Below are positions 7,478 to 61,917 of a DNA stretch of 64,000 nucleotides, piece after piece; the first letter of the stretch is position 1; each line of letters opens with the position of its first letter. Position numbers and translations under genes: made by a program. Source of the DNA: a virus; the IMG/VR virus record IMGVR_UViG_3300028772_000011, positions 1 through 64,000 of that record. One strand, given 5' to 3'. Under the pieces are notes generated by a model that saw nothing but the letters and a program-made list of their open reading frames with translations, made no database searches and was not told the DNA's origin.

Positions 7478-10400
7478 ATGCAAGAAATTTCAGAAGAACG
7501 TATTAATCAGTTCCTATCAGGCAGAGACCAAATGATGGGTATTATAGCAATGGAATGCGGATATCAAGACGAGCAAGTTTCGATCATATATAGGCATCCA
7601 ACAGCTGGTAAAAAACTTAAAAAGGTTGATTTCGAACCATTTGTGTGGGCAAAAATGGAAGGTGCAAGAAAATTATATATTGACCCTAAGACAGGTAAAC
7701 AAGATAAAATATTATTACAAAAAAAATTAACACAATTTGGAATTACGGTAAAGGGGTTAAATATTCACTCAGATGATGGTAATACAACCGAACGATTAGA
7801 AAATGGTTATCGAATATTGTTTGAGGCAAAAAATAAAATGTCTTTCAATAAGTTTCTTCAATTTTTCAAATATGGTGGATGTGATGTCTATGGACAGGAT
7901 AAATTATTTTTAGCAGTCCTTCCTGTAGAACAATATATGATGAAATCTGGAAAACGTATGTTTAAAGGTTTCGAAGATTACGACCAATTATTACGTCTGG
8001 AATTTGATTTAGAAACAACTGGATTAGATCCAACCACAGATTCGATTGAACAAATCGGTCTACGTTCAAATCACGGGTTTGAACAAATAATAAGTATTAC
8101 AGGTTATACCGAGGAAGAAAAAAGAGATACTGAACTTAGAGCTTTAGACCAATTCTTTCAAATAGTTCATAAATTAAAACCAGATGTTATAACAGGGCAT
8201 AATTCAGAGAATTTCGACTGGAATTTTATTATAGTTCGCTGTCAAATGTTAGGTACAGACATCGCCGAAATGAGTGATAAATATTTTGAGATACCAATTT
8301 ATAAGAAAAAGAGAAAAACAGCTTTAAAACTTGGTGGTGAGGTAGAATATTTTAACCAAACTATGATCTGGGGCCACAATACAACAGATTCAATTCACGC
8401 TGTTCGTAGGGCACAAGCTATTGATTCCAATATGAAAAAAGCTTCATTAAAATATGTAAGCGAATACTCAAAACTTAAAAAACCTAATAGAGTTTATGTT
8501 CCTGGGGACAAAATATCAACCATATGGAATGACACAGACAACGACTACGCATTTAATGATTCAAATGGTGATTGGTATTTAGTTGATGATTTAAATGCCT
8601 TAAAAGACGGCTATGTGATTGTGGACGGTCGTTATATCGTCGAACGTTACCTATTGGATGATTTATATGAAACCGACAAAGTAGAATTAAGATATAACCA
8701 AGCAAATTTTTTATTATGTAAAAACCTACCAACCACATTTACTAAGGTTTGTACAATGGGTACGGCTGGTACTTGGAAATTGGTTATGATGGCTTGGTCT
8801 TATGAAAATAATTTAGCTATTCCAGATTTTGCACCAGCTGGTAAATTTACTGGTGGGTTAAGTAGATTATTTAAAGTTGGTTTTGTTGAAAGTGTTGCTA
8901 AATTAGATGAAAATTCTTTATACCCAGCAATAACTTTAACTTGGGATATTAAACCATCATTAGATATAACTAACGTAATGATGTCTTTTTTAGGTTATTT
9001 TTTAGATAAACGTGAAATTTCTAAAGGACTCAAAAATGAGGCAAGTAATAAAATAGATGAACTAAAAGAAAAAATAGAATCAATCCAACCAGAAAGTGAT
9101 GAATATTCTGAAATAAAAAAAGAAATATATCAATGGGAAAGCGTCTATAATTTAAATGATAAGAAACAAATTGTCCAAAAAGTGTTTTGTAACAGCTTTT
9201 TTGGGAGTTTTGGAGCTCCAAATTTATTCCCTTGGGGTGATTTGCTATGTGCCGAGAAGATAACTTGCATTGGAAGACAGTCGTTACGATTAATGACTAA
9301 ATGGTTTGGTGATAGGGGTTACGAAGCAATTGTAATGGATACAGATGGTATAAATTTTTCACTACCTAAACATTATGATTTTTCAACTAAAGGTAAAAAT
9401 CAAAGAACATATATTGGTAAGGGTTTAAATAGAAATACAGTAGAAGGTGAAGTTTATTACGGAGTTGATGCGGATGTTGCAGAATTTGCAGATCTATTTC
9501 TCCGTGGAAAAATGGGTCTTGAGTCGGAGGACTTTTGTATTTCAACACTAAATTTCAGTCGTAAAAATTATGCAGACCAATTCAGCAACGGAAAAATCAA
9601 ATTAGTCGGTAATAGTATTAAATCAAAACGAATGCCATTATATATTGAAAAATTTTTAGATATTGGTATTAAACAATTACTCAATAATAATGGCAAAGAA
9701 TTTTTAACAGGTTATTATGATTATATTGATAGAATTTATAATTATAATATTCCTCTAATAGAAATTGCATCCAAAGGTCGAATTAAGAAATCAATCAAAG
9801 ATTATATAATAAATTGTAAGGGGGTTAATAAGAAAGGTACGCCAAATTCACGTCAAGCTTGGTATGAATTATGTATAAAGCATGATATTACTCCTGAAAT
9901 GGGTGAAATAATTTATTATATTAACATAGGTACTAAAAAAAATGATGGGGATGTAAAAAGAGAAAAGATATATAAAATTGGTGATGATGGAAAGTTTGAA
10001 ATGCAAGATTCAAAAGATAAAAATGGAGAATTATTATTAACACCAAAAGGAAAACAAAAAAGGGAAAAAATAGTTATTGGTGAAGAAATAAAATTAAATT
10101 GTATTATGATTCCTTCTTCGTTAATTGAAAGTGGGGCTAGTTTTACTGATTTAATTGGAACAGAATTTGAAGGTGTTGATTATAACGTGGTAAAATATTT
10201 GGACCAATTTAACAATAGAATTAACCCTTTATTAGTCTGCTTTCACCCAGATATAAGAAATAATATATTATCTGTTAATCCAAAAACTCGTCAATATTTT
10301 ACAGAAAAAGAAAGTAAATTAACATCTGGGATGCCAAATAAACCAGAAGACCAAGACACATATGAACAACTTATGAAAATGGAGGACAAAGAAATTAAAT

Positions 10401-10753
10401 ATTGGATTTCTGTAAATGAAATTCCACCATTTGTTAATGAAATTAATATGGATTGGGATTTAGTAGTTAAAGAATATACCGATAGGCAAGAATTATTAAA
10501 AACAGGATATTTAAAAATCGAATTTGAAACATATGTAAAAATAATTGATTCTTTAGATGAAGATGATATTAATAAGTTTATTGATGATGGTCAATTCCCA
10601 AAAGAACTATTAGAGTTTTTACTTTTTGATGGATCAACAATGGAATTTAAATCAAAAGAATATGGTGTTGTTATTGGTACTATATATGATATTATAGATA
10701 AAGACCTTTCAAAACAGGATATAGAAGATGATTTAAATTTAGTCGAATATTAA
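7478..10753 (+). CDS. DNA polymerase, family B (T4 gp43-like)
   Basis: This is the replicative polymerase with a 3'-5' proofreading domain, 1091 residues. Exo I is at about 175-180 (EFDLET, D177/E179). Exo II is near 239-250 (TGHNSENFDWNF), and a D-rich YLLDD segment precedes the palm. Polymerase motif A is DENSLYPA starting at D477, motif B is KVFCNSFFG at K568, and motif C is MDTDG with D621/D623. Motif C reads DTDG rather than the usual DTDS. The C-terminal third is long and charged and lies beyond the usual palm and thumb. The gene stands alone, driven by the host-type promoter at 7417, as expected for an early or middle replication gene. Confidence 0.96.
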   Translation: MQEISEERINQFLSGRDQMMGIIAMECGYQDEQVSIIYRHPTAGKKLKKVDFEPFVWAKMEGARKLYIDPKTGKQDKILLQKKLTQFGITVKGLNIHSDDGNTTERLENGYRILFEAKNKMSFNKFLQFFKYGGCDVYGQDKLFLAVLPVEQYMMKSGKRMFKGFEDYDQLLRLEFDLETTGLDPTTDSIEQIGLRSNHGFEQIISITGYTEEEKRDTELRALDQFFQIVHKLKPDVITGHNSENFDWNFIIVRCQMLGTDIAEMSDKYFEIPIYKKKRKTALKLGGEVEYFNQTMIWGHNTTDSIHAVRRAQAIDSNMKKASLKYVSEYSKLKKPNRVYVPGDKISTIWNDTDNDYAFNDSNGDWYLVDDLNALKDGYVIVDGRYIVERYLLDDLYETDKVELRYNQANFLLCKNLPTTFTKVCTMGTAGTWKLVMMAWSYENNLAIPDFAPAGKFTGGLSRLFKVGFVESVAKLDENSLYPAITLTWDIKPSLDITNVMMSFLGYFLDKREISKGLKNEASNKIDELKEKIESIQPESDEYSEIKKEIYQWESVYNLNDKKQIVQKVFCNSFFGSFGAPNLFPWGDLLCAEKITCIGRQSLRLMTKWFGDRGYEAIVMDTDGINFSLPKHYDFSTKGKNQRTYIGKGLNRNTVEGEVYYGVDADVAEFADLFLRGKMGLESEDFCISTLNFSRKNYADQFSNGKIKLVGNSIKSKRMPLYIEKFLDIGIKQLLNNNGKEFLTGYYDYIDRIYNYNIPLIEIASKGRIKKSIKDYIINCKGVNKKGTPNSRQAWYELCIKHDITPEMGEIIYYINIGTKKNDGDVKREKIYKIGDDGKFEMQDSKDKNGELLLTPKGKQKREKIVIGEEIKLNCIMIPSSLIESGASFTDLIGTEFEGVDYNVVKYLDQFNNRINPLLVCFHPDIRNNILSVNPKTRQYFTEKESKLTSGMPNKPEDQDTYEQLMKMEDKEIKYWISVNEIPPFVNEINMDWDLVVKEYTDRQELLKTGYLKIEFETYVKIIDSLDEDDINKFIDDGQFPKELLEFLLFDGSTMEFKSKEYGVVIGTIYDIIDKDLSKQDIEDDLNLVEY

Positions 10754-10759
10754 TAATAT

Positions 10760-10786
10760 GGTTGTAACTTGATTTAAGTTACAACC
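10760..10786. terminator. Hairpin between convergent genes, probable terminator
   Basis: An 11-base perfect stem, GGTTGTAACTT / AAGTTACAACC, has a 5-base loop just after the polymerase stop. The following bases are only moderately T-rich, so termination efficiency is less certain than at other sites. Confidence 0.6.
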
Positions 10787-10802
10787 TATGTTATTAATTT
10801 AT

Positions 10803-10889
10803 TTACACTCTTATCAAACGAAGAGGACAACCAAAAGTTTTTAATACTGCAATAGTAGCATTAGTATTAGAATTATAATTTAAATCCAT
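10803..10889 (-). pseudogene. Remnant duplicate of a FISUMP tail-fibre C-terminus
   Basis: A minus-strand frame from ATG (10889) to TAA (10803) encodes 28 residues ending in GCPLRLIRV. The fibre gene just upstream ends in ACRSLRLIKV, and the two tails also share an N-Y-x-N/S-N pattern about 20 residues earlier. The fragment therefore looks like the last piece of a second FISUMP domain, left by recombination or replacement of the fibre tip. The DNA copies differ at many synonymous positions, so the duplication is old or came from a different fibre. Confidence 0.55.
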
Positions 10890-10895
10890 AGCTTA

Positions 10896-13559
10896 TTATA
10901 CTTTTATGAGACGTAATGATCTACAAGCATTAACATATAGAGCCGCATTAACTGAACTTAAATTACCATTAGCATAATTACATTTAAATACATACTTATC
11001 TACAGTGTAGAAACCACAATCACCAGTTAATCCAGAAAAAGTTCCTACAACAGCATCCGTACCTCCACTACCCAATGCACTAAATCCACTACTATTATCA
11101 GCCCCTATATTAGGTGTATTCCAATAGCTTAACCCTTCTTTTTTTAATTTTCCACCACTGATATCATCTCCTCCTAGAGTTGTACTTAATGCAGTAAAAT
11201 CAGTTTGTGTGGGTACTTTCCAACCCCAAGGAGTTGTTGGGTTAGTATCATTATAATAGTCTATGTCCATTTGTAATAATTTAACAGCAAACCAATTGTA
11301 TAATTTACCATATACAGCTCCAATGGAAGCATCATTATTATAATAACACCACATAGCTGCTGCTTTTACTGCTTCGTAAGTTTTTTGTGTTATTGTTCCA
11401 GTTGTCTGGCCATAAATAGCATCATAAAGTTCTTTAGCCCCTGACCTCCCAATTTGCTGTACGGAAACTGAATCAAAAGAAATACCATGTCTGTCAGTAA
11501 TAGTATCTCGATTAGCATAAAAACTCAAGCCTAAATTAGCTGTAGGGGCTTTATACATCATAGTATATAATGTCCAATCTGTAGAAGATATAGTAAATAA
11601 TGTCAAACTTATACTGGAATCAGTTACAGCACCTCCAGTCCCTTTCGTGTTCTTAGCATAAAAAGATATTTTATACCATAATCCTATTGATGTAGCTGGA
11701 TATTGATAGATTACCCCAGTATTACCTGCTATGTTTGTTATAGTTTGTGACGAAGTACCTTCATATGGATCTATTATATTTGAACTTGTATTCCCTCTCG
11801 TAGAAAACCATCCAGGAGCTACACCATTTACATAAGCCCCTTCCATAGTTCCATTAACAATTTTCTCTGTATTACTATTAATAGTTACATTATTAATCAA
11901 ATTACCTTGTGGTGTACATGTCATCTCACAATTAGAAGATTGCCATTGTTGAGTACCTATTGTAACATTTGGTATATCAGGGTATAGATTCTTAATAAAA
12001 TTTGACTCTGTTAAAACTTGTACTGGTGTTAATGCTTGTGAACGTATAATATGAGCTGCTATAGAACCTTTAAATGGAGTTTGATTAGTAACAGCGGTCA
12101 TTAAACAACTTAAATTAATAGAAGTTATAATACTAATGGTTTCAAATAACACTCCATTTATAAAAATATCTAATGTATTATCTCCCTTAGCAATTATAGT
12201 AATTATTGCATTTTTACCTATTAAAAAGTCTACCTTTTTTGTTGTTGCTTTTACTGTAAATAGTGAATTTCTTATTTTTAAACTTGATGCATTATCAATT
12301 CCAAACAAACTTCCACCACTACTATTGTCACTAACATAAAAATTGGAAGTAACTCCTCTAAATGTCATAGCATTAACCAAGGTAGTTATACTCCAAGCAT
12401 CTGTATCAGTAAAATTAATAGTTGGATGTAACAGATAATTTAATCCTTCATTAGTATTCTTAATATAAGGATTTTCATTTGGAGCAATAGTTCCAAGATA
12501 ATAAGGATATGAAGAATTCCCAACACTCGACAAATCTAAAGGATCACCTGATAATACTTCTTTAATTGATACATTATCAAGACTTAACGAAGCAGCACCA
12601 GCAGTCATTATCCATAATGTTGTAGATGTAGCAACAAAAGTTTCTGAAAACATACCATTATTTTTCCTCGGTGTTGATACTCCAGTAGTTGGATTTAATA
12701 GAATGACCCCTGATGCATAATTAGAAATTTCAAACACTATCTTATATTGTTTTCCAACAGTTAATACATTAGGTTGATTTAAGTTTACTGCTGAGGATAC
12801 TAAATAATTTGCAGTTCCTCCACTAATAGTAATCCCAATTCCTTTAGACCAAATGGTATCAGTGTCAAATCCACCGTTAGCAACTTTTTCAATAGTATCT
12901 AAAACCTCTGTTCCTTGTGGAGTAATAGAGTAAAGTTTTTTGACATTATTAGTTCCAATTGCAAGATTACCCCCAACACCAAGCCAACCTAATTTAATAG
13001 AATTATACATGTTATTAAGTTTGCACAATTTAATGTAAGCAGTTATACTATTACCAAGAACTTCTACTACAGAACAATTATCTATTGATCCTATAAAAGT
13101 ACCACTATTACAAGATATAAAAACATGACCTACAGTAGTAGAGGTTAAAAAACATGTAAATGTGCCATCAGAAGAATAAGAATCTGAACGTACAGTTCCA
13201 CCTTCTAATAATACAGAACAAGTTCCACTAGTATAATTCGATATTGTTAATGTAACTTTATATTTTTTACCTACTCGAATAATTACCGAAGTTGGGTAAA
13301 TATATGTAATAGCTGTTAAACCTCCATTACAGTTTGCAGTTCCTCCTGATATATTCCAATTACTACCTTTTGTCCAGCCAGTATCAGTATCAAATCCACC
13401 ATTGGTTACTAACTCAGGTCCGAAATTAGTGTTATCCCCTAACACTCCACCATCCGCTACAACCCTATCTTTATAGGCATTAAATAGAGATAATGCAGAA
13501 TTATAAAAATTCAACATTACTTTACCTGCCATTGCTATTTGTTCTCTAAATAAACTCAT
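10896..13559 (-). CDS. Tail fibre / receptor-binding protein with carbohydrate-binding modules and FISUMP domain
   Basis: Two repeated CBM-like jelly-roll modules start with NGGFDTDT..W (about 50-165 and 225-335). A LamG/concanavalin-like segment follows (about 370-510). A FISUMP domain seems to begin near 530 (IGTQQW), is interrupted by a third CBM-like module (about 560-690, IVNGTMEGAYVNG), and resumes at about 749 (YGKLYNWFAV, GWKVPTQTDF, GGKLKKEG) to the C-terminus SLRLIKV. FISUMP domains are typical of secreted Bacteroidetes proteins. The likely role is binding cell-surface glycan at the fibre tip. It is the last of four fibre genes, 3 bases after the previous stop. Confidence 0.85.
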   Translation of the reverse strand: MSLFREQIAMAGKVMLNFYNSALSLFNAYKDRVVADGGVLGDNTNFGPELVTNGGFDTDTGWTKGSNWNISGGTANCNGGLTAITYIYPTSVIIRVGKKYKVTLTISNYTSGTCSVLLEGGTVRSDSYSSDGTFTCFLTSTTVGHVFISCNSGTFIGSIDNCSVVEVLGNSITAYIKLCKLNNMYNSIKLGWLGVGGNLAIGTNNVKKLYSITPQGTEVLDTIEKVANGGFDTDTIWSKGIGITISGGTANYLVSSAVNLNQPNVLTVGKQYKIVFEISNYASGVILLNPTTGVSTPRKNNGMFSETFVATSTTLWIMTAGAASLSLDNVSIKEVLSGDPLDLSSVGNSSYPYYLGTIAPNENPYIKNTNEGLNYLLHPTINFTDTDAWSITTLVNAMTFRGVTSNFYVSDNSSGGSLFGIDNASSLKIRNSLFTVKATTKKVDFLIGKNAIITIIAKGDNTLDIFINGVLFETISIITSINLSCLMTAVTNQTPFKGSIAAHIIRSQALTPVQVLTESNFIKNLYPDIPNVTIGTQQWQSSNCEMTCTPQGNLINNVTINSNTEKIVNGTMEGAYVNGVAPGWFSTRGNTSSNIIDPYEGTSSQTITNIAGNTGVIYQYPATSIGLWYKISFYAKNTKGTGGAVTDSSISLTLFTISSTDWTLYTMMYKAPTANLGLSFYANRDTITDRHGISFDSVSVQQIGRSGAKELYDAIYGQTTGTITQKTYEAVKAAAMWCYYNNDASIGAVYGKLYNWFAVKLLQMDIDYYNDTNPTTPWGWKVPTQTDFTALSTTLGGDDISGGKLKKEGLSYWNTPNIGADNSSGFSALGSGGTDAVVGTFSGLTGDCGFYTVDKYVFKCNYANGNLSSVNAALYVNACRSLRLIKV

Positions 13560-13562
13560 AAA

Positions 13563-16040
13563 TTACATCCCCCACCATAAATAAATTTGTCCTGCACTAC
13601 GTATCTCACATTGTAAATAATTCGTACTTAATGGTATGTAGTCACTTTGCAATGCTCCATAAATCCAATTGCTAGTGTACCCACTAAATATAGAAGTTGC
13701 TAACGTTCCTCCTGTCATAATAACCTTAAAAGGTTTTTTGATAATTGGATTCATTATAGTAAGAGCTTGATTAGTTCCCATAGTAACAGAGAACTCCTCT
13801 CCTGTAGTCATATCTATATTGAAGCCTGGTAGAGCTACTGTTGTTATAGGTTGATTATATAATCCAACTATATTTCCATTGGCATCTACTTTAAACAAAG
13901 TTACCCATGTACCACTTCCTTTGGTGGCATTAGCTACAGTACACTTTTCAAACAATACAGTACTCATTTGATTAGAGTGTCGTATGTCTCCTACTGCATC
14001 ACCTACAGCTGTAGTTATTGATTGATATACATAACGGAGAGCTAAGTCGCGATAATTTCCTAATGTATTATTATTTATCTCTATAATTCCAGTTGTATTT
14101 TTTTGGAATGACTGAGTAGAATCGGTCATAGACAACTTCGAATATATCATAACATTATTAGAAGTATTTACATAAAAGGAGTTAATACCTGATGTAGGAG
14201 AAAAAAACATAGCGTTACCAGAACCATCAAATGAAAACCACTTGTTATATATCCCGAACCCAAATCCATTATAATTAATACTAAAAGGACTACCAACAGT
14301 GATTGAAGTTGCACTAATATAAGTAGCAATAATACGTTCCTCTGAATTGATTATAATTTTTGCTCCTATCATTGCAGCACTGAATGCCGTACCAATGCCA
14401 GTTATAGTAGTACCATTTGTTGAAATAGTTCCAGAAATAGTCCAAGGAGTAGTATGATAGATTATACCACCATTTTGAGAAACAAACTTAGTTATTTGAT
14501 CATTTGATACAGGTAATGTATTTGGATAAATTGTTTTGAATTTTAAACTAGCAGCATCCCAAACAGATACTCCTTTGTCGATAGGAACCTCTTCACGAGT
14601 AGCTAAAGGTTGAGTACTTCCAACGTCTCCAACTCTTGCTATACCATTATTATCAAATACTAATAATCCATCATTAACTCCATCATATAACTTAGCCCTT
14701 ATACCAACTAACTGTCCTGGAGAAAGTCCTGCAACTGCTAAATCACGAAGTATTATCTCATTTTTAGTTGTTAATACTTGTTCTGCATGAGTTTCGTAAG
14801 AAGCACCTAATTGAGATATGTTCTCTACATGTAAGGTTCCAGCAGCATCCAATAAAACAGAGTGAGTACCATTAACAAGACTTGTTGGGTCTATTGAAAT
14901 TAAGGTTGAATCTATTACTTTATTATCTCCATCAATACATAGATAGTGGTTTGTAAGGTCATCTGTTTGGAATACTCCGTCAGTCAGTCTACAATAATAA
15001 TAAGTGCTACCAAAATAAGCTAAAGCCCCAAAATCACCCACACAATAAGAATACTTACTATTAACTCCATTACAAGAATCTACTCCACCAATACAATTAA
15101 TATAAATACTATCAGGACCGTTAAAAACTTGACCAATACCTCTACAATTTATATGTATGTTATTTACCCCATTAAAGGCATTCTCAAGAGCTTCACAATT
15201 TATATAAGTACAATTACTACCCCTAAAACCAGATTGTCCTGCCTTACAATTAATAAATTTAGCACCTAAAGGAGAGATGGTAGTGAAAGTATTATTTAGT
15301 TTATTTCCACAATTTTCGAATGAACCAGTTAATGACCCACCGCCAGCAAACATCTCTCTGTCTAAACTATTTATATTCTTAAAAGTACCTGAATAAATTG
15401 AACTAGAATTAAATAGAGTACCGCCTATACTATTTATATTTTCAAAGATTCCAGAGAACTCCAAAGCACTATGAAAACTTTCAACACTAGTAACTTCAAT
15501 ATTTCTAAATACTCCAGACAATATAGCATCACTAGTGCCATATATTCTACCTTTACAATTCTCAACCAACAAGCCTGGATAATTACCAGATACAAGTAAT
15601 CCGTTGTGAACGAAATCAAGACCCCTTAATTTTATATTATCTGCCATTACTATACACCCACTGTGACCTATTTTAACATCAGCTTGTCCAGTATCTGATA
15701 CTAAATATATATAAGAAGTATCTAAAACTAATTGTGTGTCCATACCACAGAATCTAGCTTTTATTAAAATATAAATAGGACTATCAGAAGTAGGAGACAT
15801 GGTTTTTGCTATATTATATACTGATTCTAATTCCAGACCATTATCAGAATTACTTTGTCCTCCAAATACTGTTAGATATCTATCCTGATTAAATAAAGCT
15901 GCTGCAACTCCTACATTTTCCTTACCACTTAAATCTACAGCAGGAATAGCTGCTATTAACTGAGCAGCAACTCCTACATCTTCTTTTGAAGTATCATGAA
16001 CCTCAGTCCAAATTCCATTTATTTTTATTTTGTGTTTCAT
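13563..16040 (-). CDS. Tail fibre / tailspike-like protein with right-handed beta-helix
   Basis: The N-terminus has two copies of a KE[D/N]VGVAAxL connector (about 18-28 and 40-50), also found in the neighbouring 1077-residue protein. From about 60 to 345 there are short repeats rich in G, N, C, I and Y (IYINC, FINCKA, GTFKNINS), the look of a right-handed parallel beta-helix as in tailspikes. The C-terminal 450 residues are beta-rich and end in an aromatic tip (YLWWGM). I see no clear catalytic residues for a depolymerase. The start codon overlaps the upstream stop by one base (TAATG), so translation is probably coupled. Confidence 0.8.
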   Translation of the reverse strand: MKHKIKINGIWTEVHDTSKEDVGVAAQLIAAIPAVDLSGKENVGVAAALFNQDRYLTVFGGQSNSDNGLELESVYNIAKTMSPTSDSPIYILIKARFCGMDTQLVLDTSYIYLVSDTGQADVKIGHSGCIVMADNIKLRGLDFVHNGLLVSGNYPGLLVENCKGRIYGTSDAILSGVFRNIEVTSVESFHSALEFSGIFENINSIGGTLFNSSSIYSGTFKNINSLDREMFAGGGSLTGSFENCGNKLNNTFTTISPLGAKFINCKAGQSGFRGSNCTYINCEALENAFNGVNNIHINCRGIGQVFNGPDSIYINCIGGVDSCNGVNSKYSYCVGDFGALAYFGSTYYYCRLTDGVFQTDDLTNHYLCIDGDNKVIDSTLISIDPTSLVNGTHSVLLDAAGTLHVENISQLGASYETHAEQVLTTKNEIILRDLAVAGLSPGQLVGIRAKLYDGVNDGLLVFDNNGIARVGDVGSTQPLATREEVPIDKGVSVWDAASLKFKTIYPNTLPVSNDQITKFVSQNGGIIYHTTPWTISGTISTNGTTITGIGTAFSAAMIGAKIIINSEERIIATYISATSITVGSPFSINYNGFGFGIYNKWFSFDGSGNAMFFSPTSGINSFYVNTSNNVMIYSKLSMTDSTQSFQKNTTGIIEINNNTLGNYRDLALRYVYQSITTAVGDAVGDIRHSNQMSTVLFEKCTVANATKGSGTWVTLFKVDANGNIVGLYNQPITTVALPGFNIDMTTGEEFSVTMGTNQALTIMNPIIKKPFKVIMTGGTLATSIFSGYTSNWIYGALQSDYIPLSTNYLQCEIRSAGQIYLWWGM

Positions 16041-19000
16041 TATTCTGGTAGATTTTGTGGTAAAATGTTGTTGATATCAAATCCTAAAGCAACTAAACGG
16101 TCAATTTCAGGTTGAGGTAGATTATTGTATTGGAAACTAAATCCAGTATTATATATATTTTTTATTGAACTGATATTTATAGATTCAAGATTATTATTCT
16201 GTAAATAAATATAATTCAAATTATTCAGTGAATCTAAACCTATTATATCAATAGGATATACTGATTGATTAATGCTTAATGTTCTTAAATTTGGAGTTGA
16301 AGCCATGTTTATAGATTGTAATTCAGTATTTCCTATTTCCAAATAAAATAAATTATTCAATCCTAATAAATTTATTTCAGTTAATTTATTTCCTCCACAT
16401 GAAACATATTGTAATTCTTGTGATGAACTTAAATCTAAATATTCCAGTTTATTAAAACCACATAATAAGGCTTGTAAATTATTTAATCCTGTTAAATTTA
16501 AAACAGATACTAATAATCCATATTCCTGAGATACATTTAAAATATACACTTTATTTGAGTCTAAAACAGAAGGTAGAATAACCCCATACCCATTCGCCAT
16601 GTCTTGTAGACTAGGATTATCTCCAAATAAAGCACCTAATTGAATATCATTATCCCACCATTCAGTGTGAGGGTTTTTAGAATCATCAAATAACACTGCT
16701 AACTGTTCACTTTGTGGATTGGCATCACGAATAGCCCTTAATATGTCAACATCAGATAGCACAACTACAGGTTCACTAGTATCATACCACACTTTTATAT
16801 TTGGATTAACAGGTTCTTCCGTTCCTATATAAACTTCTTCAAATATTCCACTTGTGTATAATTCATCAATTTCCTGTTGAAGTGTATTAGTCTTATTATC
16901 ATACTCAGTATGTACCCCTTCCACAACAGCTGTAAACTCCTCTCTTGTTGTATACCCGCTTAAATCTACTATCGGTAAATCATCAATTATACTAGCCTGT
17001 ATTCTCTTATTTTCCTTTGGTTGAACATGTATATAATACGGTGTATTTATTTGTCTAGTTGATTTTAATAAATCCCCATTAAGAGCTACATAAGTTTGTA
17101 AAGTTAGAGCATCATCTTTAGATGGAATCTTCCAACCATTGGTTGTATCAACGATACCTTTTCCATTGGAAATAGTATATGCGTTATATAATCTGCCATA
17201 TGTTGATACAATTAATTCATCGGTTGTTAACTCATCGATATATGGTATTATAGAAGTACTCCCAGTATTATCTAATACCCATTGTTCATTGGTTAAATTA
17301 TTATTTATAAGAGACCCATCTTGATAATGAGTTACTTTTAAATTTGAAGTGATCCAAATTTGAGTTCCTATTTTACAAGTATCATATATATTATTATCAT
17401 AATCTTTATAAATTGCTGTAGTCTTACCATCAGGTAATGATAATTCTAAAGTAGTACAATCCCTAACAACTCTTAATGATTGTCCATTATTAGGATGTTT
17501 ATTATCAGTTACATATAAAGATGAATATCCAGCATACAAATTTATAGCTGTATATCCAATAAAACCAGGTGTTTGGGTTGAAGTCCAAATAGAACTAATT
17601 CCACCAACACCAGCGTTTAATGCGGTACCTGTAAATATGCCAGTAATTCCATTTCTAGTACCTCCTGGAATTAAATTAAATCCATATTTATCAATTCCAT
17701 ATATATCTATATTTTGAGAATCAATCCATCTTGGGTGTAATATAGTTGATAAAGGTAATTTTTCCCATTTACTTTGGTCAACTTCAGAAAATAAAGCTGC
17801 TGCCACTCCTACATCCTCCTTACTATCGTGAGCATGAGAAGTTATATTTCCAGTAAGTAAGTTTTCAATTTGTTGTTTGGTAAGAATGTAGTTAGAAAGT
17901 CCGTTTAATTTATTAAGTAAGTTATTAGTTAATACATTCGTGTCGGAATTACTCTCATAACTAAGTTTTATTTGGGCAGAACTCATTACTGCGTTTAACA
18001 TATCTGGGTCAGATGTTTTTACAAAAGAGGCATTAATCCCAACAGAAGTAGCTTGATATACTGCCCACTTTCCATCTCCATCATCTAATATGAAGACAGA
18101 AAATGGTAGTTTTGGTATGTTGTATTCGTTTCTCTCTGGAATCCCAGCTAATACAACTTGCTCTACAGCACCCTGTACTAAATTATATAATTTTTGTAGT
18201 GTATCTCCTGCTGAGGTTACTCCATCTCTAAGGTTTGAAATTAAAATAGCTGCTACACCTGCATCCTCTTTACCACTTAAATCAACTACTGGCAGCCCAT
18301 CGATTATACTAGCATGAATCTTAACTGGAAGTCCATTCCTCTGTTTTGGTTGAATATAATTGTGATCTTCAATTTGTATGATATTATAAACATTCAATTC
18401 ATCATTATTATAAGCACAAACTGCTCCATCAGTACCACTGAAATCTGAACCGATTAATGAGCCATCACGATATTTAGTTTCACATAAGTTTTCAGCTAAC
18501 CACCATTGAGTTCCTATTTTTACGCATTTATATATTTGACCATCATTACCAATATATTCAGCCGTATGTCCTGTAATATTTATTGGATTATCAATTATTG
18601 CTCTAATTGAACACCCTGCTTTTTTATTATCACTCGATGCTCCATTTGATAATGAATTTGTTTGAAAATAATAATCATAAACTCTCAGTGCATTGTTATC
18701 ATTAAAACTATCAGCCAACCACATATAAAAAGTAGAATAATCCCCTAATATAAAGTGAAATGTACCATCAGTCTCTCTATATCCACTAGCTCTTTCATTG
18801 AAACCATATTCATTAGTTGCTGTTGCATTTGGTGCATCCCAATACAAAGTACCTGTTTCTTTTAATTTTTGCCCACCATTACCATTTCCACCTAAAAATG
18901 CATATAAAATATTAAATTCATTTTTAGTTGAAATATGTGCACTAGATGTTGTAATACCTCTTGGATCTGTTGTAGCATACCAATTATAAAGCCTACCATA

Positions 19001-19273
19001 TTTGATAGATTGTACATCGGTAGTTGCATTTTCCCATTTACTCTGTTCAAAATTAACAAGGTCAGAATCATCCACACCATCTTTAAACCAATATTTAGTA
19101 TTTCCATTTATTTCATCCAATATTCGTACTTCCATTGTTGGAAACCTGACAGCTATAGGTATAGTATTTATTGCTTCAGCAATAGATGAATAAGGTCCTT
19201 CCCAAGTATTTACTGGGACAGGATTAACTGGTTGTATACCAAACGGTAATTGTAATCCTTCAGTTATCCCCAT
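16040..19273 (-). CDS. Multidomain tail fibre with split FISUMP segments and leucine-rich repeats
   Basis: FISUMP-type segments occur in an unusual order. An end-type part is at about 91-227 (YGRLYNWYATTD to SIRAII) and a beginning-type part at about 251-275 (IGTQWWLAENL). A second end-type part is at about 526-604 (to SLRVVRD), and a beginning plus middle at about 634-740 (IGTQIWITSNL, YGRLYNAY, GWKIPSKDDA). KED[AV]GVAA connectors sit near 333 and 484. The C-terminus (about 910-1065) is a run of leucine-rich repeats (LEYLDLSSSQELQYVSCGGN type). The most likely role is host-surface recognition. It overlaps both neighbouring genes by one base. Confidence 0.85.
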   Translation of the reverse strand: MGITEGLQLPFGIQPVNPVPVNTWEGPYSSIAEAINTIPIAVRFPTMEVRILDEINGNTKYWFKDGVDDSDLVNFEQSKWENATTDVQSIKYGRLYNWYATTDPRGITTSSAHISTKNEFNILYAFLGGNGNGGQKLKETGTLYWDAPNATATNEYGFNERASGYRETDGTFHFILGDYSTFYMWLADSFNDNNALRVYDYYFQTNSLSNGASSDNKKAGCSIRAIIDNPINITGHTAEYIGNDGQIYKCVKIGTQWWLAENLCETKYRDGSLIGSDFSGTDGAVCAYNNDELNVYNIIQIEDHNYIQPKQRNGLPVKIHASIIDGLPVVDLSGKEDAGVAAILISNLRDGVTSAGDTLQKLYNLVQGAVEQVVLAGIPERNEYNIPKLPFSVFILDDGDGKWAVYQATSVGINASFVKTSDPDMLNAVMSSAQIKLSYESNSDTNVLTNNLLNKLNGLSNYILTKQQIENLLTGNITSHAHDSKEDVGVAAALFSEVDQSKWEKLPLSTILHPRWIDSQNIDIYGIDKYGFNLIPGGTRNGITGIFTGTALNAGVGGISSIWTSTQTPGFIGYTAINLYAGYSSLYVTDNKHPNNGQSLRVVRDCTTLELSLPDGKTTAIYKDYDNNIYDTCKIGTQIWITSNLKVTHYQDGSLINNNLTNEQWVLDNTGSTSIIPYIDELTTDELIVSTYGRLYNAYTISNGKGIVDTTNGWKIPSKDDALTLQTYVALNGDLLKSTRQINTPYYIHVQPKENKRIQASIIDDLPIVDLSGYTTREEFTAVVEGVHTEYDNKTNTLQQEIDELYTSGIFEEVYIGTEEPVNPNIKVWYDTSEPVVVLSDVDILRAIRDANPQSEQLAVLFDDSKNPHTEWWDNDIQLGALFGDNPSLQDMANGYGVILPSVLDSNKVYILNVSQEYGLLVSVLNLTGLNNLQALLCGFNKLEYLDLSSSQELQYVSCGGNKLTEINLLGLNNLFYLEIGNTELQSINMASTPNLRTLSINQSVYPIDIIGLDSLNNLNYIYLQNNNLESINISSIKNIYNTGFSFQYNNLPQPEIDRLVALGFDINNILPQNLPE

Positions 19274-45832: not shown

Positions 45833-46837
45833 TTAAAATAAATTTATTGTATAATCTATATTATCTAAATCCTTTAATACCGAAGCTGCTTTTTCAACTT
45901 CGTTAACAAACAGATCAACATTCTTTGATAGCTCAGAAATACTATTTTCAACCTGAATAAAATGTTCATCATTCTGGTCGTATGCATATTCTGGTAGCCC
46001 CCAAATTGAATTAAGTGTTTTTCTTTTAATTAAATCAAAGCCTCTATTAGCCTCATCCGTTTCAACCATTATATTATAGAAATTAGGATAAGACAATGTT
46101 TGGGTGTTAAAAAAAGCATTATATTTATTCTGTAATTCCAAGAACTTTTTACTATACTGTTGTAAAAACAAAGTATTAATTTGAGGGACATCTTCATTGA
46201 TAACCCTTCTAACGACATTTTCAATCAATGATTTTATATTTATATTTTCCATAATGAGGTCATTTTCTATTGCTAATTCTTTAATTTCTGTTTTATCGCT
46301 AGAATCGATTGAATCAGATGATAATAATGCTGACACAACTTCTTTCGTTACCAAACCACTCCTAAGTATTTCTTTAAATTTTTCAATATTATTTTCCACT
46401 AATATTATATTGTCAGAATCTGACTTAGCTAATGTTGCATTTTTAAATTTCGGATAAAAATATGGTATGTTATTGGTTTTTTTAAAATCATATATTTGAC
46501 CGCATTTTATTTGAATAATATTTTCAATTGGAATTGATCTTGCAGCCCCTTGTATTCCATTAACATCGTATTGAGAATTATCTCTAATGAATAGTAAATC
46601 AAGATCACTCATTTTAACATCACGACTATTATTACTCTGACTTCTTTTGAGCATTGTATCAACATTCATTGTAGCATGAGTAATATTCCGCAATTCTCCT
46701 GTTGTTCTCTTCACAAACAATACAGAAAAATGTTGTTTTCCGTTAGCAATTTTATTCCATAATTCAACTGGGAATATATGCCTGGAAAATGCTTCCGTTA
46801 AAGGTAATATGTCATTATTTTTTGCTGCGAGGATCAT
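45833..46837 (-). CDS. Unknown protein of the head-gene cluster
   Basis: This 334-residue protein has a beta-rich N-terminal part (HFSVLFVKRTTGELRNITHATMN; DLDLLFIRDNSQYDVNGIQGAARSIPIENI) and a helical C-terminus. In the middle, IKSLIENVVRRVINED resembles the amphipathic helix plus [L/I]-x-E found in other virion candidates. It overlaps the preceding endonuclease gene by 4 bases (ATGA). A virion role is inferred from context; no family is recognised. Confidence 0.65.
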   Translation of the reverse strand: MILAAKNNDILPLTEAFSRHIFPVELWNKIANGKQHFSVLFVKRTTGELRNITHATMNVDTMLKRSQSNNSRDVKMSDLDLLFIRDNSQYDVNGIQGAARSIPIENIIQIKCGQIYDFKKTNNIPYFYPKFKNATLAKSDSDNIILVENNIEKFKEILRSGLVTKEVVSALLSSDSIDSSDKTEIKELAIENDLIMENINIKSLIENVVRRVINEDVPQINTLFLQQYSKKFLELQNKYNAFFNTQTLSYPNFYNIMVETDEANRGFDLIKRKTLNSIWGLPEYAYDQNDEHFIQVENSISELSKNVDLFVNEVEKAASVLKDLDNIDYTINLF

Positions 46838-47640
46838 TTAAGAATTTGTTTTAATAATAACTCTGGTATATTTTCATTAGTTGTACATATAGTATTCTTT
46901 TCATTATATATATTTTCAAACATTGGGGTTATCATCATATATTTTGTAAACTCAATTTTGTTTGTTACATATATTAAATCAACCTTATTATCTTTACATA
47001 GTTTATTCTTTTTAATATCTCTACCAACATTTTTTATAAATCCAGTTTTTCCACCAAAATGTTCCATATGTGATTCAAAATGTTGTTCTCCTTGGCACTC
47101 TATAGCTATTTTATAATCGGGTAAATAAAAATCTAAGGATTGTCGTCCAAGCCATCTAAATTTTTTCTGTTCAATATATTCAATTTTATTATCCGTTAAA
47201 ATTTTACCTATAAATACCTCTATTTTACTTTTTATTTTGCTACATTCTGGGCATCCGTGCTTCTCATTTGTATGCTTATTAGGCATTTGCCAGAATTCTC
47301 CGTGTATTGGACATATTATACATACAGGTAATTTGCTATGGGTATATTCAACTTTAGAATAATCATATTTATCTCCATGAACTAATATTGCATTTTCAAT
47401 AAATTTATCTCTGGTTAATCTAATTGTGTTACCTCTTCTTTCGTTATAACACATTTGACAATCATTTATTTCGTTTTTACAAACTAACCAATTTGGTTTT
47501 GACTCCCAAGTATAATTGTGTATTGTACATTTAGCTGTTATGTATTTTTTATTTCCATTATATTGAGAAAGTACTACCAAATGCGGCTTTATTATTTTAA
47601 GTTGTTCAACAAATTGTTCATGTGTAATTTTTGGCGGCAT
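46834..47640 (-). CDS. Zinc-ribbon / Vsr-like endonuclease, 2-repeat member (homing candidate)
   Basis: This 268-residue protein has one degenerate and one good copy of a repeat: FIENAILVHGDKYDYSKVEY, then CPIHGEFWQMP and GCPECSK, a C..H..C-x-x-C zinc-ribbon pattern. A restriction-endonuclease-like domain follows: LDFYLPDYKIAIECQGEQHF (about 167-186, D...E-x-Q pattern) with a DIKKNKLCKDNKVDLIYVT tail, similar to Vsr-type homing nucleases. It is inserted between gp21 and the head cluster. Two larger paralogues lie at 57170 and 60793. Role as a free-standing homing nuclease is inference. Confidence 0.78.
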   Translation of the reverse strand: MPPKITHEQFVEQLKIIKPHLVVLSQYNGNKKYITAKCTIHNYTWESKPNWLVCKNEINDCQMCYNERRGNTIRLTRDKFIENAILVHGDKYDYSKVEYTHSKLPVCIICPIHGEFWQMPNKHTNEKHGCPECSKIKSKIEVFIGKILTDNKIEYIEQKKFRWLGRQSLDFYLPDYKIAIECQGEQHFESHMEHFGGKTGFIKNVGRDIKKNKLCKDNKVDLIYVTNKIEFTKYMMITPMFENIYNEKNTICTTNENIPELLLKQILK

Positions 47641-56343: not shown

Positions 56344-57186
56344 TCAAAAATTTACAAATTCTTCAACATTTTCATTTAAATCTTCCAAAGAATTGATACG
56401 GAACTTATAATACCCATAATCTGAGGATATATCGTGTTCTTCATATGTAATGTCTGTTGTATCAAATAAATCCCAAATAAGAAACCCGTGCCCACTGTTA
56501 ACCGTTTCACCAAAATTTTGTTGAATTAGCGAACCAGGTTGAACGATTTTAATTCCATTATAATCTTGTTCTTGACGTAAATGTACATCTCCACATAATA
56601 CAGCATCTGAACCATCAAACATTTCAAGACTTTTGCCGTGTTCAAACATAAATCCACTTTCATTTTTAAGTCCAATTGTCATACCATGAAATAAGGATAG
56701 AAATATTTTATCTGAGTATTCTATTTTTTTTAATTTTATATCAATTGGTGTATGATTATCAAATACAGAAAATAAAGACCACATAATATTTTCATCTTCA
56801 TAAAATCCACCTTTATAACCCAATTCCATATCTAAATATATAATATTAGGTAACTCAAGCATTTGAACAATAGGAGTTAGGCTATCTACGCGATCTTTAT
56901 TATTTTCTAAAAAATCATGATTACCACTAATGATAATTGTTTTACATATTTTATCACACTCCCTAAGAAACCAACTAAGTAGTTGATTCTGTTCATTTGA
57001 CACGGTAATCTTAGAATGGACTAAATCTCCAACGATACAAATTCGAGTAGATTCTTTTCCGTTTTCATCAACAATTTCTTTTGCTTGTTTTAAAAATTCT
57101 GTTATTACTTCCTTATATTCTTGGTGACGTTGAAAATTTCTAATATGTATATCAGCCAAATGAATTACCTTAGTTATTTTTTGCAT
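56344..57186 (-). CDS. Metallophosphoesterase, SbcD/Mre11-like (T4 gp47-like)
   Basis: This 280-residue protein has the five phosphoesterase motifs: HLADIHIRN (D12, H14), VGDLVHSK (D54), SGNHDF (88-91), an FHG strand, and CGDVHLRQ. With gp46 the T4 homologue processes DNA ends for recombination-dependent replication. No gp46 ATPase gene is next to it here, in contrast to T4. It is shorter than T4 gp47 (339). It overlaps the preceding endonuclease gene by 17 bases and precedes the methyltransferase by 1 base. Confidence 0.85.
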   Translation of the reverse strand: MQKITKVIHLADIHIRNFQRHQEYKEVITEFLKQAKEIVDENGKESTRICIVGDLVHSKITVSNEQNQLLSWFLRECDKICKTIIISGNHDFLENNKDRVDSLTPIVQMLELPNIIYLDMELGYKGGFYEDENIMWSLFSVFDNHTPIDIKLKKIEYSDKIFLSLFHGMTIGLKNESGFMFEHGKSLEMFDGSDAVLCGDVHLRQEQDYNGIKIVQPGSLIQQNFGETVNSGHGFLIWDLFDTTDITYEEHDISSDYGYYKFRINSLEDLNENVEEFVNF

Positions 57187-58888
57187 TTTCTTTTAATTTT
57201 ATTATATCGTTAATTTTATTAATTAATTCTTGTTCATCAATATATACTTTATCTATATAGTCAATTATATATTTTGGGTTTTCATATGTAAAATATAATA
57301 AATTGACATTATTCTTCTTACATAAATTATTTTTTCTAATATCTCTTTCTCTTACTTCTGAAAATCCTTTAGCTCCACCCCAACAATTATTTTCATCAAA
57401 ATGTTGCCTTCCATGATATTCAATAGCTATATCATATTCTGTTAAATACATATCAATACTTTGAGCCCTTAACCATTTATCTCTAAATTGGTATACTAAA
57501 TTATAGTTTTGAAAATTATCTCTAATAATAGATAATAATTTTTGTTCAGATATATCATTTTTTGAAGCACACTCTGGACAATTAGATCCTCTCAAATGAC
57601 TACTTGGTATTTGCCAGAATTCTCCGTGGATTTGGCATATAATACATATTTTAGTTGATGAGTTAACGTAATTTACTTTTGAATAATCATATTTTTCCCA
57701 ACGCGCATTTTTTAGCTTTTTAACGTATTCAGTAGTTTCCATTTTATTACACTCTGAACACCCACAGCCTTTAAGGTGAACTTCTGGTGTTTGTGTAAAA
57801 TCTCCGTGTTTTAAGCAAGTTATTATAACAGTGGTGTGTCTGTCAACATATTCTACTTTTGAATAGTCATATTTATTTCCATGAATCAATTTTGCTTTTG
57901 TTATAAATTTTTCATTTGTAAATCTTAAAGCATTTCCAACTATTTCACCTGCACATTTAGGGCAACCTCCACCTCGCAAATGGCTATTTGGTAGTTGCCA
58001 AAATTCACCATGAACTGGGCAAATAATATATACTTTTAAATTCCAATTAATATATTCTGTTTTTGAGTATATATATTTTTCACCATGAATTAATCTTGAT
58101 TGTTCTATAAACTCATCACTTGTCTTACTATTTTTACATTTTATACACCCCAAGCCATCTAAATGTTTCTTAGGCTTCTGTTTAAAATCACCATGTATAG
58201 GACAATTGATTATTACTGGCGTTTTGTTGTCAACATATATTACTTTAGAATAATCATATTTATTTCCATATATTATTTTGGATTTTAAAATGAATGATTC
58301 TGTTGTTAAAACCCCATTTGCGCATTTAGGGCAGCCATGTCCAAATGAATGATTTGCAGGTAATTGCCAAAATTCCCCATGTTCAGGACATATTATACAA
58401 ATTTCAGTAGTTGAATTAATATATGTAACTTTTGAATAGTCATATTTATTATTATGTATTTTAATTGATTTTTCTATAAATTCATTAAAATTTAAAGCTA
58501 AAGAATTTGTTTTAGTACAATTAGGACATCCGAAACCCTTTAAATGGTCTTCTGGTTTTTGCAAAAACTCACCGTGTTCTGAACATATTATAATTACAGG
58601 GGTATTTTTATCTACATATTTAACCTTTGAATAATCATATTTATTTTTATGTATCTCATTAGCTTTATCCGAAAACATTTCAGTAGTTGGTACATTGTGG
58701 CCGCATTTAGTACAATTATTACCGTTTAAATGATTGTTTGGTAATTGGTAAAATTCACCGTGTATTTTACATATAATACAAACATGTTTTTTACTATTAA
58801 CATAAACTACTTTTGAATAATCATATCTATCTCCATGAATCAGTATAGCTTTTTCGATAAATTCCTCTCTTGTTAATTTTTTAGGCAT
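57170..58888 (-). CDS. Zinc-ribbon-repeat endonuclease, 7-repeat member (homing candidate)
   Basis: This 572-residue protein has seven tandem copies of a repeat of about 60-65 residues. The consensus is HGxKYDYSKVxY, then C-x-x-HGEFxQ-x-P-x-x-H and G-x-C-x-x-C, a zinc-ribbon pattern. A C-terminal Vsr-like nuclease domain follows (SIDMYLTEYDIAIEYHGRQHF, about 475-495; then RERDIRKNNLCKKNNVNLLYF). The repeat number probably sets a long DNA-recognition surface, as tandem zinc modules do elsewhere. Its ATG overlaps the stop of a small ribbon-helix-helix gene, suggesting co-regulation. The paralogues at 46834 and 60793 have 2 and 4 repeats. Confidence 0.82.
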   Translation of the reverse strand: MPKKLTREEFIEKAILIHGDRYDYSKVVYVNSKKHVCIICKIHGEFYQLPNNHLNGNNCTKCGHNVPTTEMFSDKANEIHKNKYDYSKVKYVDKNTPVIIICSEHGEFLQKPEDHLKGFGCPNCTKTNSLALNFNEFIEKSIKIHNNKYDYSKVTYINSTTEICIICPEHGEFWQLPANHSFGHGCPKCANGVLTTESFILKSKIIYGNKYDYSKVIYVDNKTPVIINCPIHGDFKQKPKKHLDGLGCIKCKNSKTSDEFIEQSRLIHGEKYIYSKTEYINWNLKVYIICPVHGEFWQLPNSHLRGGGCPKCAGEIVGNALRFTNEKFITKAKLIHGNKYDYSKVEYVDRHTTVIITCLKHGDFTQTPEVHLKGCGCSECNKMETTEYVKKLKNARWEKYDYSKVNYVNSSTKICIICQIHGEFWQIPSSHLRGSNCPECASKNDISEQKLLSIIRDNFQNYNLVYQFRDKWLRAQSIDMYLTEYDIAIEYHGRQHFDENNCWGGAKGFSEVRERDIRKNNLCKKNNVNLLYFTYENPKYIIDYIDKVYIDEQELINKINDIIKLKENAKNN

Positions 58889-60792: not shown

Positions 60793-61917
60793 TTAATTTT
60801 GAGAAATATTTAATTCTTTATTTAATATTTCTTCTATATTATAAAATTCCGTATATGGGATTCTAATTAATTTAATACCATTATCAAGACAATATTGTGT
60901 TTTAATTTCATCTCTTTTTTTATTAAGTATAAAAGATATTTCTCCTCCCCAATGATTAACTGGTTGAAAATGCTGTTTACCATCGAATTCTATACATATA
61001 TTAAGCGATGGTATGTAAAAATCAAAAGGTAATGGTTTTATATTCTTGCATTCATTAAATCTATGTTGGTTGATATTAATAATATTTTTCTTATTTAATA
61101 TTTTCATAATTAAGCTTTCGCCTTTACTTTCTATACAAATAGGACACCCTTTACCTTGTAAATGATTGGTAGGGCTACACGAAAATTGACCATGTTTTTT
61201 ACAAATAATATTAACCTTTTTATGTGCAGTTTCATATTTCACTAACGAATAATCAAATTTATCACCATGAATAAGTTTTGCGCTTAAAATAAACTCATTA
61301 GTTGTTGGTTTAATTTTATTACTACATTTAGCACATCCATCGCCTCGTAAATGATGCTCAACAGTTTGCTTGATAATATTACCACAATCCTTACAATAAA
61401 AAATAATATAATCGGTTAATTTAATAAAAACAACATCTGAATAATCAAATTTATTTTTATGTTTAATATTTGCCTTTTTTATAAATTCTTCTTTTGATAG
61501 ATAATAATTTCCTAAACATTTTTTACAACCATTACCTTTAGATATTAATAATGATCCAGCTTGAACATAAAAATTATTTCCACATTTTTTACATATTACG
61601 TTAACTTTTCCTTTATCGTTAATATAATTAATATTTGATAGGTCATAACTATCTCCGTGCTTTTTATATAACTCTAATAAATATTGCTCTTGCGTTTTTG
61701 TTCTTTTTAACGTACCCTTTTTTATACTGCATTTTGGGCATCCACTGCCTAATAAATGTGATCCAGCTTCTTGTTCAAAAAATTCTTTATGAATATTACA
61801 AAATATTTTTAATTTAGAGTGTCTTCCACTATATATTGTTTCAGAATAATTATATCTATCTCCGTGAATTAATCTTGCTTTAATTATAAATTCTTCTGTT
61901 GTAAGTTTTTTACTCAT
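60793..61917 (-). CDS. Zinc-ribbon-repeat endonuclease, 4-repeat member (homing candidate)
   Basis: This 374-residue protein has four zinc-ribbon repeats of the same family as the 572-residue protein (LIHGDRYNYSETIYS, KKHGDSYDLSNINY, IKHKNKFDYSDVVF, LIHGDKFDYSLVKY; each with C-x-x-C ends). A C-terminal nuclease domain (FDFYIPSLNICIEFDGKQHF, about 310-330) ends with IKLIRIPYTEF. The repeats here are less regular. It lies next to an early promoter region. With the other two it forms a family; a homing function is inferred. Confidence 0.8.
   Translation of the reverse strand: MSKKLTTEEFIIKARLIHGDRYNYSETIYSGRHSKLKIFCNIHKEFFEQEAGSHLLGSGCPKCSIKKGTLKRTKTQEQYLLELYKKHGDSYDLSNINYINDKGKVNVICKKCGNNFYVQAGSLLISKGNGCKKCLGNYYLSKEEFIKKANIKHKNKFDYSDVVFIKLTDYIIFYCKDCGNIIKQTVEHHLRGDGCAKCSNKIKPTTNEFILSAKLIHGDKFDYSLVKYETAHKKVNIICKKHGQFSCSPTNHLQGKGCPICIESKGESLIMKILNKKNIININQHRFNECKNIKPLPFDFYIPSLNICIEFDGKQHFQPVNHWGGEISFILNKKRDEIKTQYCLDNGIKLIRIPYTEFYNIEEILNKELNISQN

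What the first reader, a model, noticed from the sequence alone, without database searches (positions are those of the whole stretch)
10803..10889. Broken duplicate of a fibre C-terminus downstream of the fibre gene
A 28-residue frame ending PLRLIRV resembles the end of the adjacent 887-residue fibre (SLRLIKV). It suggests that fibre tips are swapped by recombination, leaving remnants, which would be a host-range mechanism.
Basis: partly seen in the sequence, partly recalled or inferred. Interest (0 to 1): 0.6.

Follow-up and report, generated by a model that had tools for sequence, protein, structure and literature searches.

The report
Leftover end of replaced phage fibre
Just behind a phage's tail-fibre gene lies the last 28 codons of a different fibre tip, which is found whole in an otherwise unrelated giant phage, so this is a fossil of one swap of the part thought to touch the host.

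Summary
The 28-codon frame at 10803-10889 (-) is not a duplicate of the adjacent fibre's own end. It is the end of a different tip. Block 10799-10892 is 98% identical (92/94 nt, both changes synonymous) to the 3' end of an intact, in-frame tip on an 877-aa fibre in a 330-kb virus contig (G003). G003 lacks the window phage's terminase and polymerase, and elsewhere resembles this phage only weakly. The window fibre carries another tip plus its own stop; the old end begins 3 nt after that stop, in a 3' untranslated stretch closed by a strong hairpin. Against G003 the fibre is a sandwich: the outer parts differ by about 2-5% (13396-14495; 10799-10892), the centre by about 17-19%, and the tip is unrelated. 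This fits C-terminal displacement by recombination, as described for Rhs and Vibrio T6SS effectors. No reverse transcriptase or invertase was found, and G003's intact in-frame copy argues against an independent short gene. It is the only such leftover among 137 FISUMP gene ends examined (59 viral), so it records one event, not a running mechanism. A host-range effect is plausible but untested. Neighbouring contig G004 looks like an assembly chimera and is not counted as evidence.

The parts
10803..10889 (-). 28-codon open frame with stop: the end of the displaced tip ('tip A'); its ATG corresponds to an internal Met codon of the intact G003 tip
10799..10892 (-). full extent of the remnant block, 92/94 nt identical to G003 127791-127884; both differences synonymous
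10893..10898 (-). joint: fibre stop TAA plus 3 nt (TAA), then the remnant begins at GCTATGG
10896..13559 (-). 887-aa tail-fibre-like protein with a C-terminal FISUMP domain (PF09603, residues 723-853)
10896..11064 (-). present variable tip ('tip B', residues 833-887), no DNA similarity to the G003 tip
11065..13395 (-). replaced centre of the fibre: 81-83% DNA identity patches with G003 separated by unalignable stretches
13396..14495 (-). left flank, 95% identical to G003: first 54 codons of the fibre plus the C-terminal 310 codons of the upstream fibre gene (13563-16040)
10749..10798 (.). long hairpin between the remnant and the convergent DNA polymerase gene, a likely two-way transcription terminator
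7478..10753 (+). family B DNA polymerase, convergent neighbour, not found in G003

Best explanation
The frame is the cut-off 3' end of an earlier fibre tip. An ancestor of this phage carried a fibre cassette whose outer parts and tip A are still seen in G003. Recombination then replaced the inside of the fibre gene, from about residue 55 to the end. The incoming segment brought a divergent shaft, a new FISUMP tip (B) and its own stop codon. On the left the exchange ran through DNA nearly identical between alleles. On the right the tips share no usable homology, so the join was made inside the old tip and left its last 28 codons behind the new stop. The leftover is transcribed at most as 3' untranslated RNA before the hairpin, and is probably a neutral scar. 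Shown: identity of the remnant, the intact form elsewhere, the sandwich pattern, the sharp joint, and no detectable reverse transcriptase or resolvase-type invertase in the contig. Inferred: order and direction of events, one-sided homology as mechanism, and a host-recognition benefit.
For: 98% DNA identity to an intact in-frame tip. Remnant divergence (2/94) fits that of the left flank (32/955 over 13396-14350, P=0.39) and not the 17% of the centre (P=6e-6; Fisher P=1.4e-5). Outside this cassette G000 and G003 share only short or weak DNA matches (85% or less), and G003 lacks detectable homologues of the terminase and polymerase. The same joint is present in three contigs, G000, G001 and G002. 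Tips are the variable part of an otherwise well-conserved domain. The mechanism has precedents in Rhs and Vibrio T6SS loci (PMC2935791; PMC5361080).
Against: The donor of tip B was not found, so the right-hand joint cannot be examined for microhomology. G001 and G002 are 100% identical to the window over the region, so three contigs count as one phage population. No second case was found in 59 viral FISUMP gene ends. Direction of transfer between the two phages is undetermined.
Confidence: 0.82

Rival explanations
1. The ancestor had two tandem fibre genes. A deletion from just behind the first gene's stop into the tip of the second removed all but the last 28 codons.
For: Tandem FISUMP genes exist in bacterial genomes, with complete copies roughly 650-1000 nt downstream. 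The joint lies 3 nt behind the fibre stop, which such a deletion could give.
Against: No tandem copy behind the fibre in G003 or in the 59 viral gene ends. It does not by itself explain why the centre of the fibre is 17-19% divergent while both flanks are 2-5% divergent.
Confidence: 0.1
2. The frame is a conserved short gene, or is read by stop-codon readthrough to lengthen the fibre.
For: It is open, begins with ATG and is in the fibre's own frame.
Against: Two consecutive TAA codons separate them. Its ATG is an internal codon of the intact tip. A degenerate pattern for its end finds only 4 viral contigs: two with this joint and two with the intact tip.
Confidence: 0.03
3. It is the template repeat of a diversity-generating retroelement. 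FISUMP domains are known DGR targets (PMC4159848).
For: The position just behind the 3' end of a FISUMP gene is where a template repeat can lie (general knowledge of DGRs; target domain).
Against: No reverse transcriptase in G000, G002, G003 or G004, while control genomes rang. The remnant and the fibre's 3' end do not show near-identity with changes at template A positions; only a 33-nt patch aligns, and there is no other copy in the contig. The two differences from G003 are at one T and one A.
Confidence: 0.02
4. The joint is an assembly artefact joining two tip alleles of a mixed population.
For: Contig G004 is evidently such a hybrid, switching phages inside a 137-bp exact match.
Against: The joint recurs in three contigs. 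The two alleles share only GCTATGG and the sequence after it, with nothing in common before it, so there is no shared word spanning the joint to mislead an assembler.
Confidence: 0.03

Closest known systems
C-terminal displacement in rhs genes (Jackson et al. 2009, PMC2935791)
   Same: Conserved front, exchangeable tip, and a displaced old tip lying directly behind the gene that now carries a new tip.
   Different: Dissociated rhs tips keep a piece of the conserved core and often a complete tip; here only the last 28 codons remain and no core, so the leftover cannot readily be reused by homology. It is a phage fibre, not a toxin.
Sequential displacement of T6SS effectors in Vibrio cholerae (Kirchberger et al. 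2017, PMC5361080)
   Same: Proposed mechanism of homologous anchor on one side and illegitimate join on the other, with old 3' material left downstream.
   Different: There the leftovers are immunity genes in arrays that may stay useful; here a single, apparently useless scrap.
Sharing of fibre modules between distantly related phages (Alteromonas phages A5, V22, P24; PMC10579305)
   Same: Fibre genes exchanged between phages that are otherwise unlike.
   Different: There whole modules with chaperones and old transfers; here a recent partial cassette with an identifiable scar.
Tail fibre recombination hot spots (Litunavirus PMC9786124; Pectobacterium tailocins PMC13195805)
   Same: Recombination concentrated in the variable 3' part of fibre genes.
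   Different: No tip remnant is described in the passages I read.

Membership tests
FISUMP (Fib_succ_major, PF09603 / TIGR02145) domain protein, for the fibre | Match to PF09603 above its curated cut-off | tested here: met
   59.5 bits against cut-off 33.9; TIGR02145 37.4 bits, just under its cut-off 41.65
FISUMP domain protein, for the remnant | Profile match of the 28-residue frame itself | tested here: not met
   No Pfam or NCBIfam match; it belongs by identity to the end of a FISUMP tip in G003
C-terminal displacement (rhs type) | Displaced tip lies directly downstream of the gene with the new tip | tested here: met
C-terminal displacement (rhs type) | The same tip is attached to a homologous gene elsewhere | tested here: met
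   G003 fibre, flank 95% and tip end 98% identical
C-terminal displacement (rhs type) | Dissociated tip preceded by a copy of the conserved core | tested here: not met
   Only the last 28 codons are present
Diversity-generating retroelement | Reverse transcriptase near the target | tested here: not met
   the contig may be incomplete
Diversity-generating retroelement | Template repeat near-identical to the variable repeat, differences at template A | tested here: not met
Invertible fibre tip system (Mu/P1 type) | Serine invertase with alternative tip on the opposite strand | tested here: not met
   No resolvase family match; the remnant is on the same strand and is not a full tip

The most novel reading that the evidence does not exclude
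In large phages of this environment, fibre tips are traded repeatedly between unrelated phages through one-sided homology: the conserved front of the fibre acts as anchor and the old tip is displaced behind the gene. Leftovers would then let one read a history of past host-recognition tips.
Probability: 0.12. Interest if true: 0.6.

Novelty: new member of a known kind. Interest (0 to 1): 0.38.

Why it matters
It gives a clear trace of a fibre-tip replacement and names an intact counterpart in an otherwise unrelated giant phage, which suggests that the two share or shared hosts. It also shows tip displacement with a leftover, known from rhs and T6SS genes, in a phage fibre. As a single case it illustrates rather than changes current views.

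Tried and rejected
DNA and protein searches of 50,697 phage records found nothing. Retroelement, invertase and GIY-YIG endonuclease were not found in the window's contig. The search for a donor of tip B found only the phage itself and one weak partial match. The search for further leftovers, by motif (54 of 59 viral ends recognised) and by tblastn, found convincingly only this one in viral contigs. A first structure prediction from 11 sequences was too poor (mean pLDDT 49.5). A second from 68 sequences was usable (81.3) but matched no solved structure, only predicted phage FISUMP proteins, so no receptor type can be named. G004 was first considered as an intermediate form and was rejected as a probable assembly hybrid. 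Two family searches failed on wrong coordinates; the first was repeated correctly.

Full report
What is there. The window is the first 64,000 bases of a 93,274-base virus record, with terminase, portal and family B DNA polymerase genes. Three fibre-like genes run on the minus strand between 10.9 and 19.3 kb, with a further long gene at 19.3-21.5 kb. The last in transcription order is the 887-aa protein at 10896-13559, whose C-terminus is a FISUMP domain (PF09603). From its stop codon on, the sequence reads TAA TAA GCT ATG, and then the 28-codon frame ending PLRLIRV. Next comes a strong hairpin at 10749-10798 (z about -5 on both strands) and the convergent polymerase gene.

What the frame is. 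A scan of viral contigs with the fibre gave the same phage twice (L001, L002, 100% identical) and a fibre in a 330,208-base contig (G003; locus L003) whose protein ends with exactly these residues, in frame, after a full FISUMP domain. In DNA the shared block is 94 nt at 98%, window 10799-10892 against G003 127791-127884. The two differences are synonymous. The ATG of the frame is an internal codon of the intact tip. The frame is therefore the end of another tip, not a damaged copy of the present one.

The sandwich. Compared with G003, the window shows 95% identity from 14495 to 13396, which covers the C-terminal part of the upstream fibre gene and the first 54 codons of this fibre. Then come patches of 83% and 81% separated by unalignable DNA, an unrelated tip, and the 98% remnant. 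The remnant's divergence fits the left flank (P=0.39 against the rate over 13396-14350) and not the centre (P=6e-6). The simplest reading is that flank and remnant belong to one older cassette whose inside was replaced.

G003 is a different phage. It has no detectable homologue of the window's terminase or polymerase, and outside the cassette the shared DNA is short or weak, 85% identity or less. It carries UvsW-like helicase, topoisomerase, HSP70 and NAD synthase genes, as expected of a giant phage; that label is my inference. Its fibre lies next to the NAD synthase gene, not a polymerase gene. The cassette therefore moved between unlike phages recently enough to keep 95-98% identity in its outer parts.

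A trap. Contig G004 joins G003 sequence (100%) on its left to window-phage sequence (99.8-100%) on its right. The switch falls inside the longest exact match between the two phages, 137 bp at 13852-13988. An assembly error is the likeliest cause, so G004 is not used as evidence of a natural intermediate. The same worry hardly applies to the remnant joint: it recurs in three contigs, and the two alleles have nothing in common on the upstream side of GCTATGG, so no shared word spans the joint.

Mechanism. One-sided homology fits the anatomy: near-identical DNA at the left, an illegitimate join inside the old tip at the right. This is the model proposed for T6SS effector displacement in Vibrio cholerae (PMC5361080) and is close to C-terminal displacement in rhs genes (PMC2935791). 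Unlike rhs leftovers, this one has no conserved core in front of it. Sharing of fibre modules between distantly related phages is documented (PMC10579305).

Alternatives tested. A diversity-generating retroelement was considered because FISUMP domains are known targets (PMC4159848), but no reverse transcriptase and no template pattern was found. No resolvase-type invertase was found. A conserved short gene or readthrough product is unlikely: two stop codons stand in between, and the end pattern occurs in only four contigs. Deletion of a tandem second fibre remains possible but explains less.

How general. Among 137 distinct FISUMP gene ends, 59 of them viral, only this phage shows an orphan tip end close behind the gene, with no reverse-strand control hit. 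The alignment of relatives shows why tips matter: the body of the domain is conserved, while the last 50 or so residues vary strongly before a conserved final LRLIK segment. That pattern suggests a binding surface; no binding was tested. The predicted fold matches only other predicted phage FISUMP proteins.

Verdict. A real fossil of a fibre-tip replacement, well documented as a single event, with a known kind of mechanism. A host-range effect is plausible but unproven.

Noticed in passing
G004 (IMGVR_UViG_3300029998_000020), near 71.1-71.3 kb; window 13852-13988: This public viral contig looks like a hybrid of two phages, switching inside a 137-bp exact match between the window phage and the 330-kb phage.
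   Followed up: yes
window 13563-16040 and G003 130432-134928: The upstream fibre gene is itself a mosaic: identity to G003 begins abruptly near 14495, and G003 holds additional diverged copies of that segment inside one 1498-aa protein.
   Followed up: partly
window 16040-19273: A second fibre-like gene carries three FISUMP matches and ends in what look like leucine-rich repeats.
   Followed up: no
window 46834-47640, 57170-58888, 60793-61917; contig 77382-78308: A family of repeat-containing proteins related to several places in G003, noticeable in number for a phage.
   Followed up: no
G003 near 119.2 kb; L011 downstream of its fibre: GIY-YIG endonuclease genes lie about 8 kb from the G003 fibre and, judged by eye from the translation, directly behind the fibre in L011; they could promote exchange at fibre loci. 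None was found in the window's own contig.
   Followed up: partly
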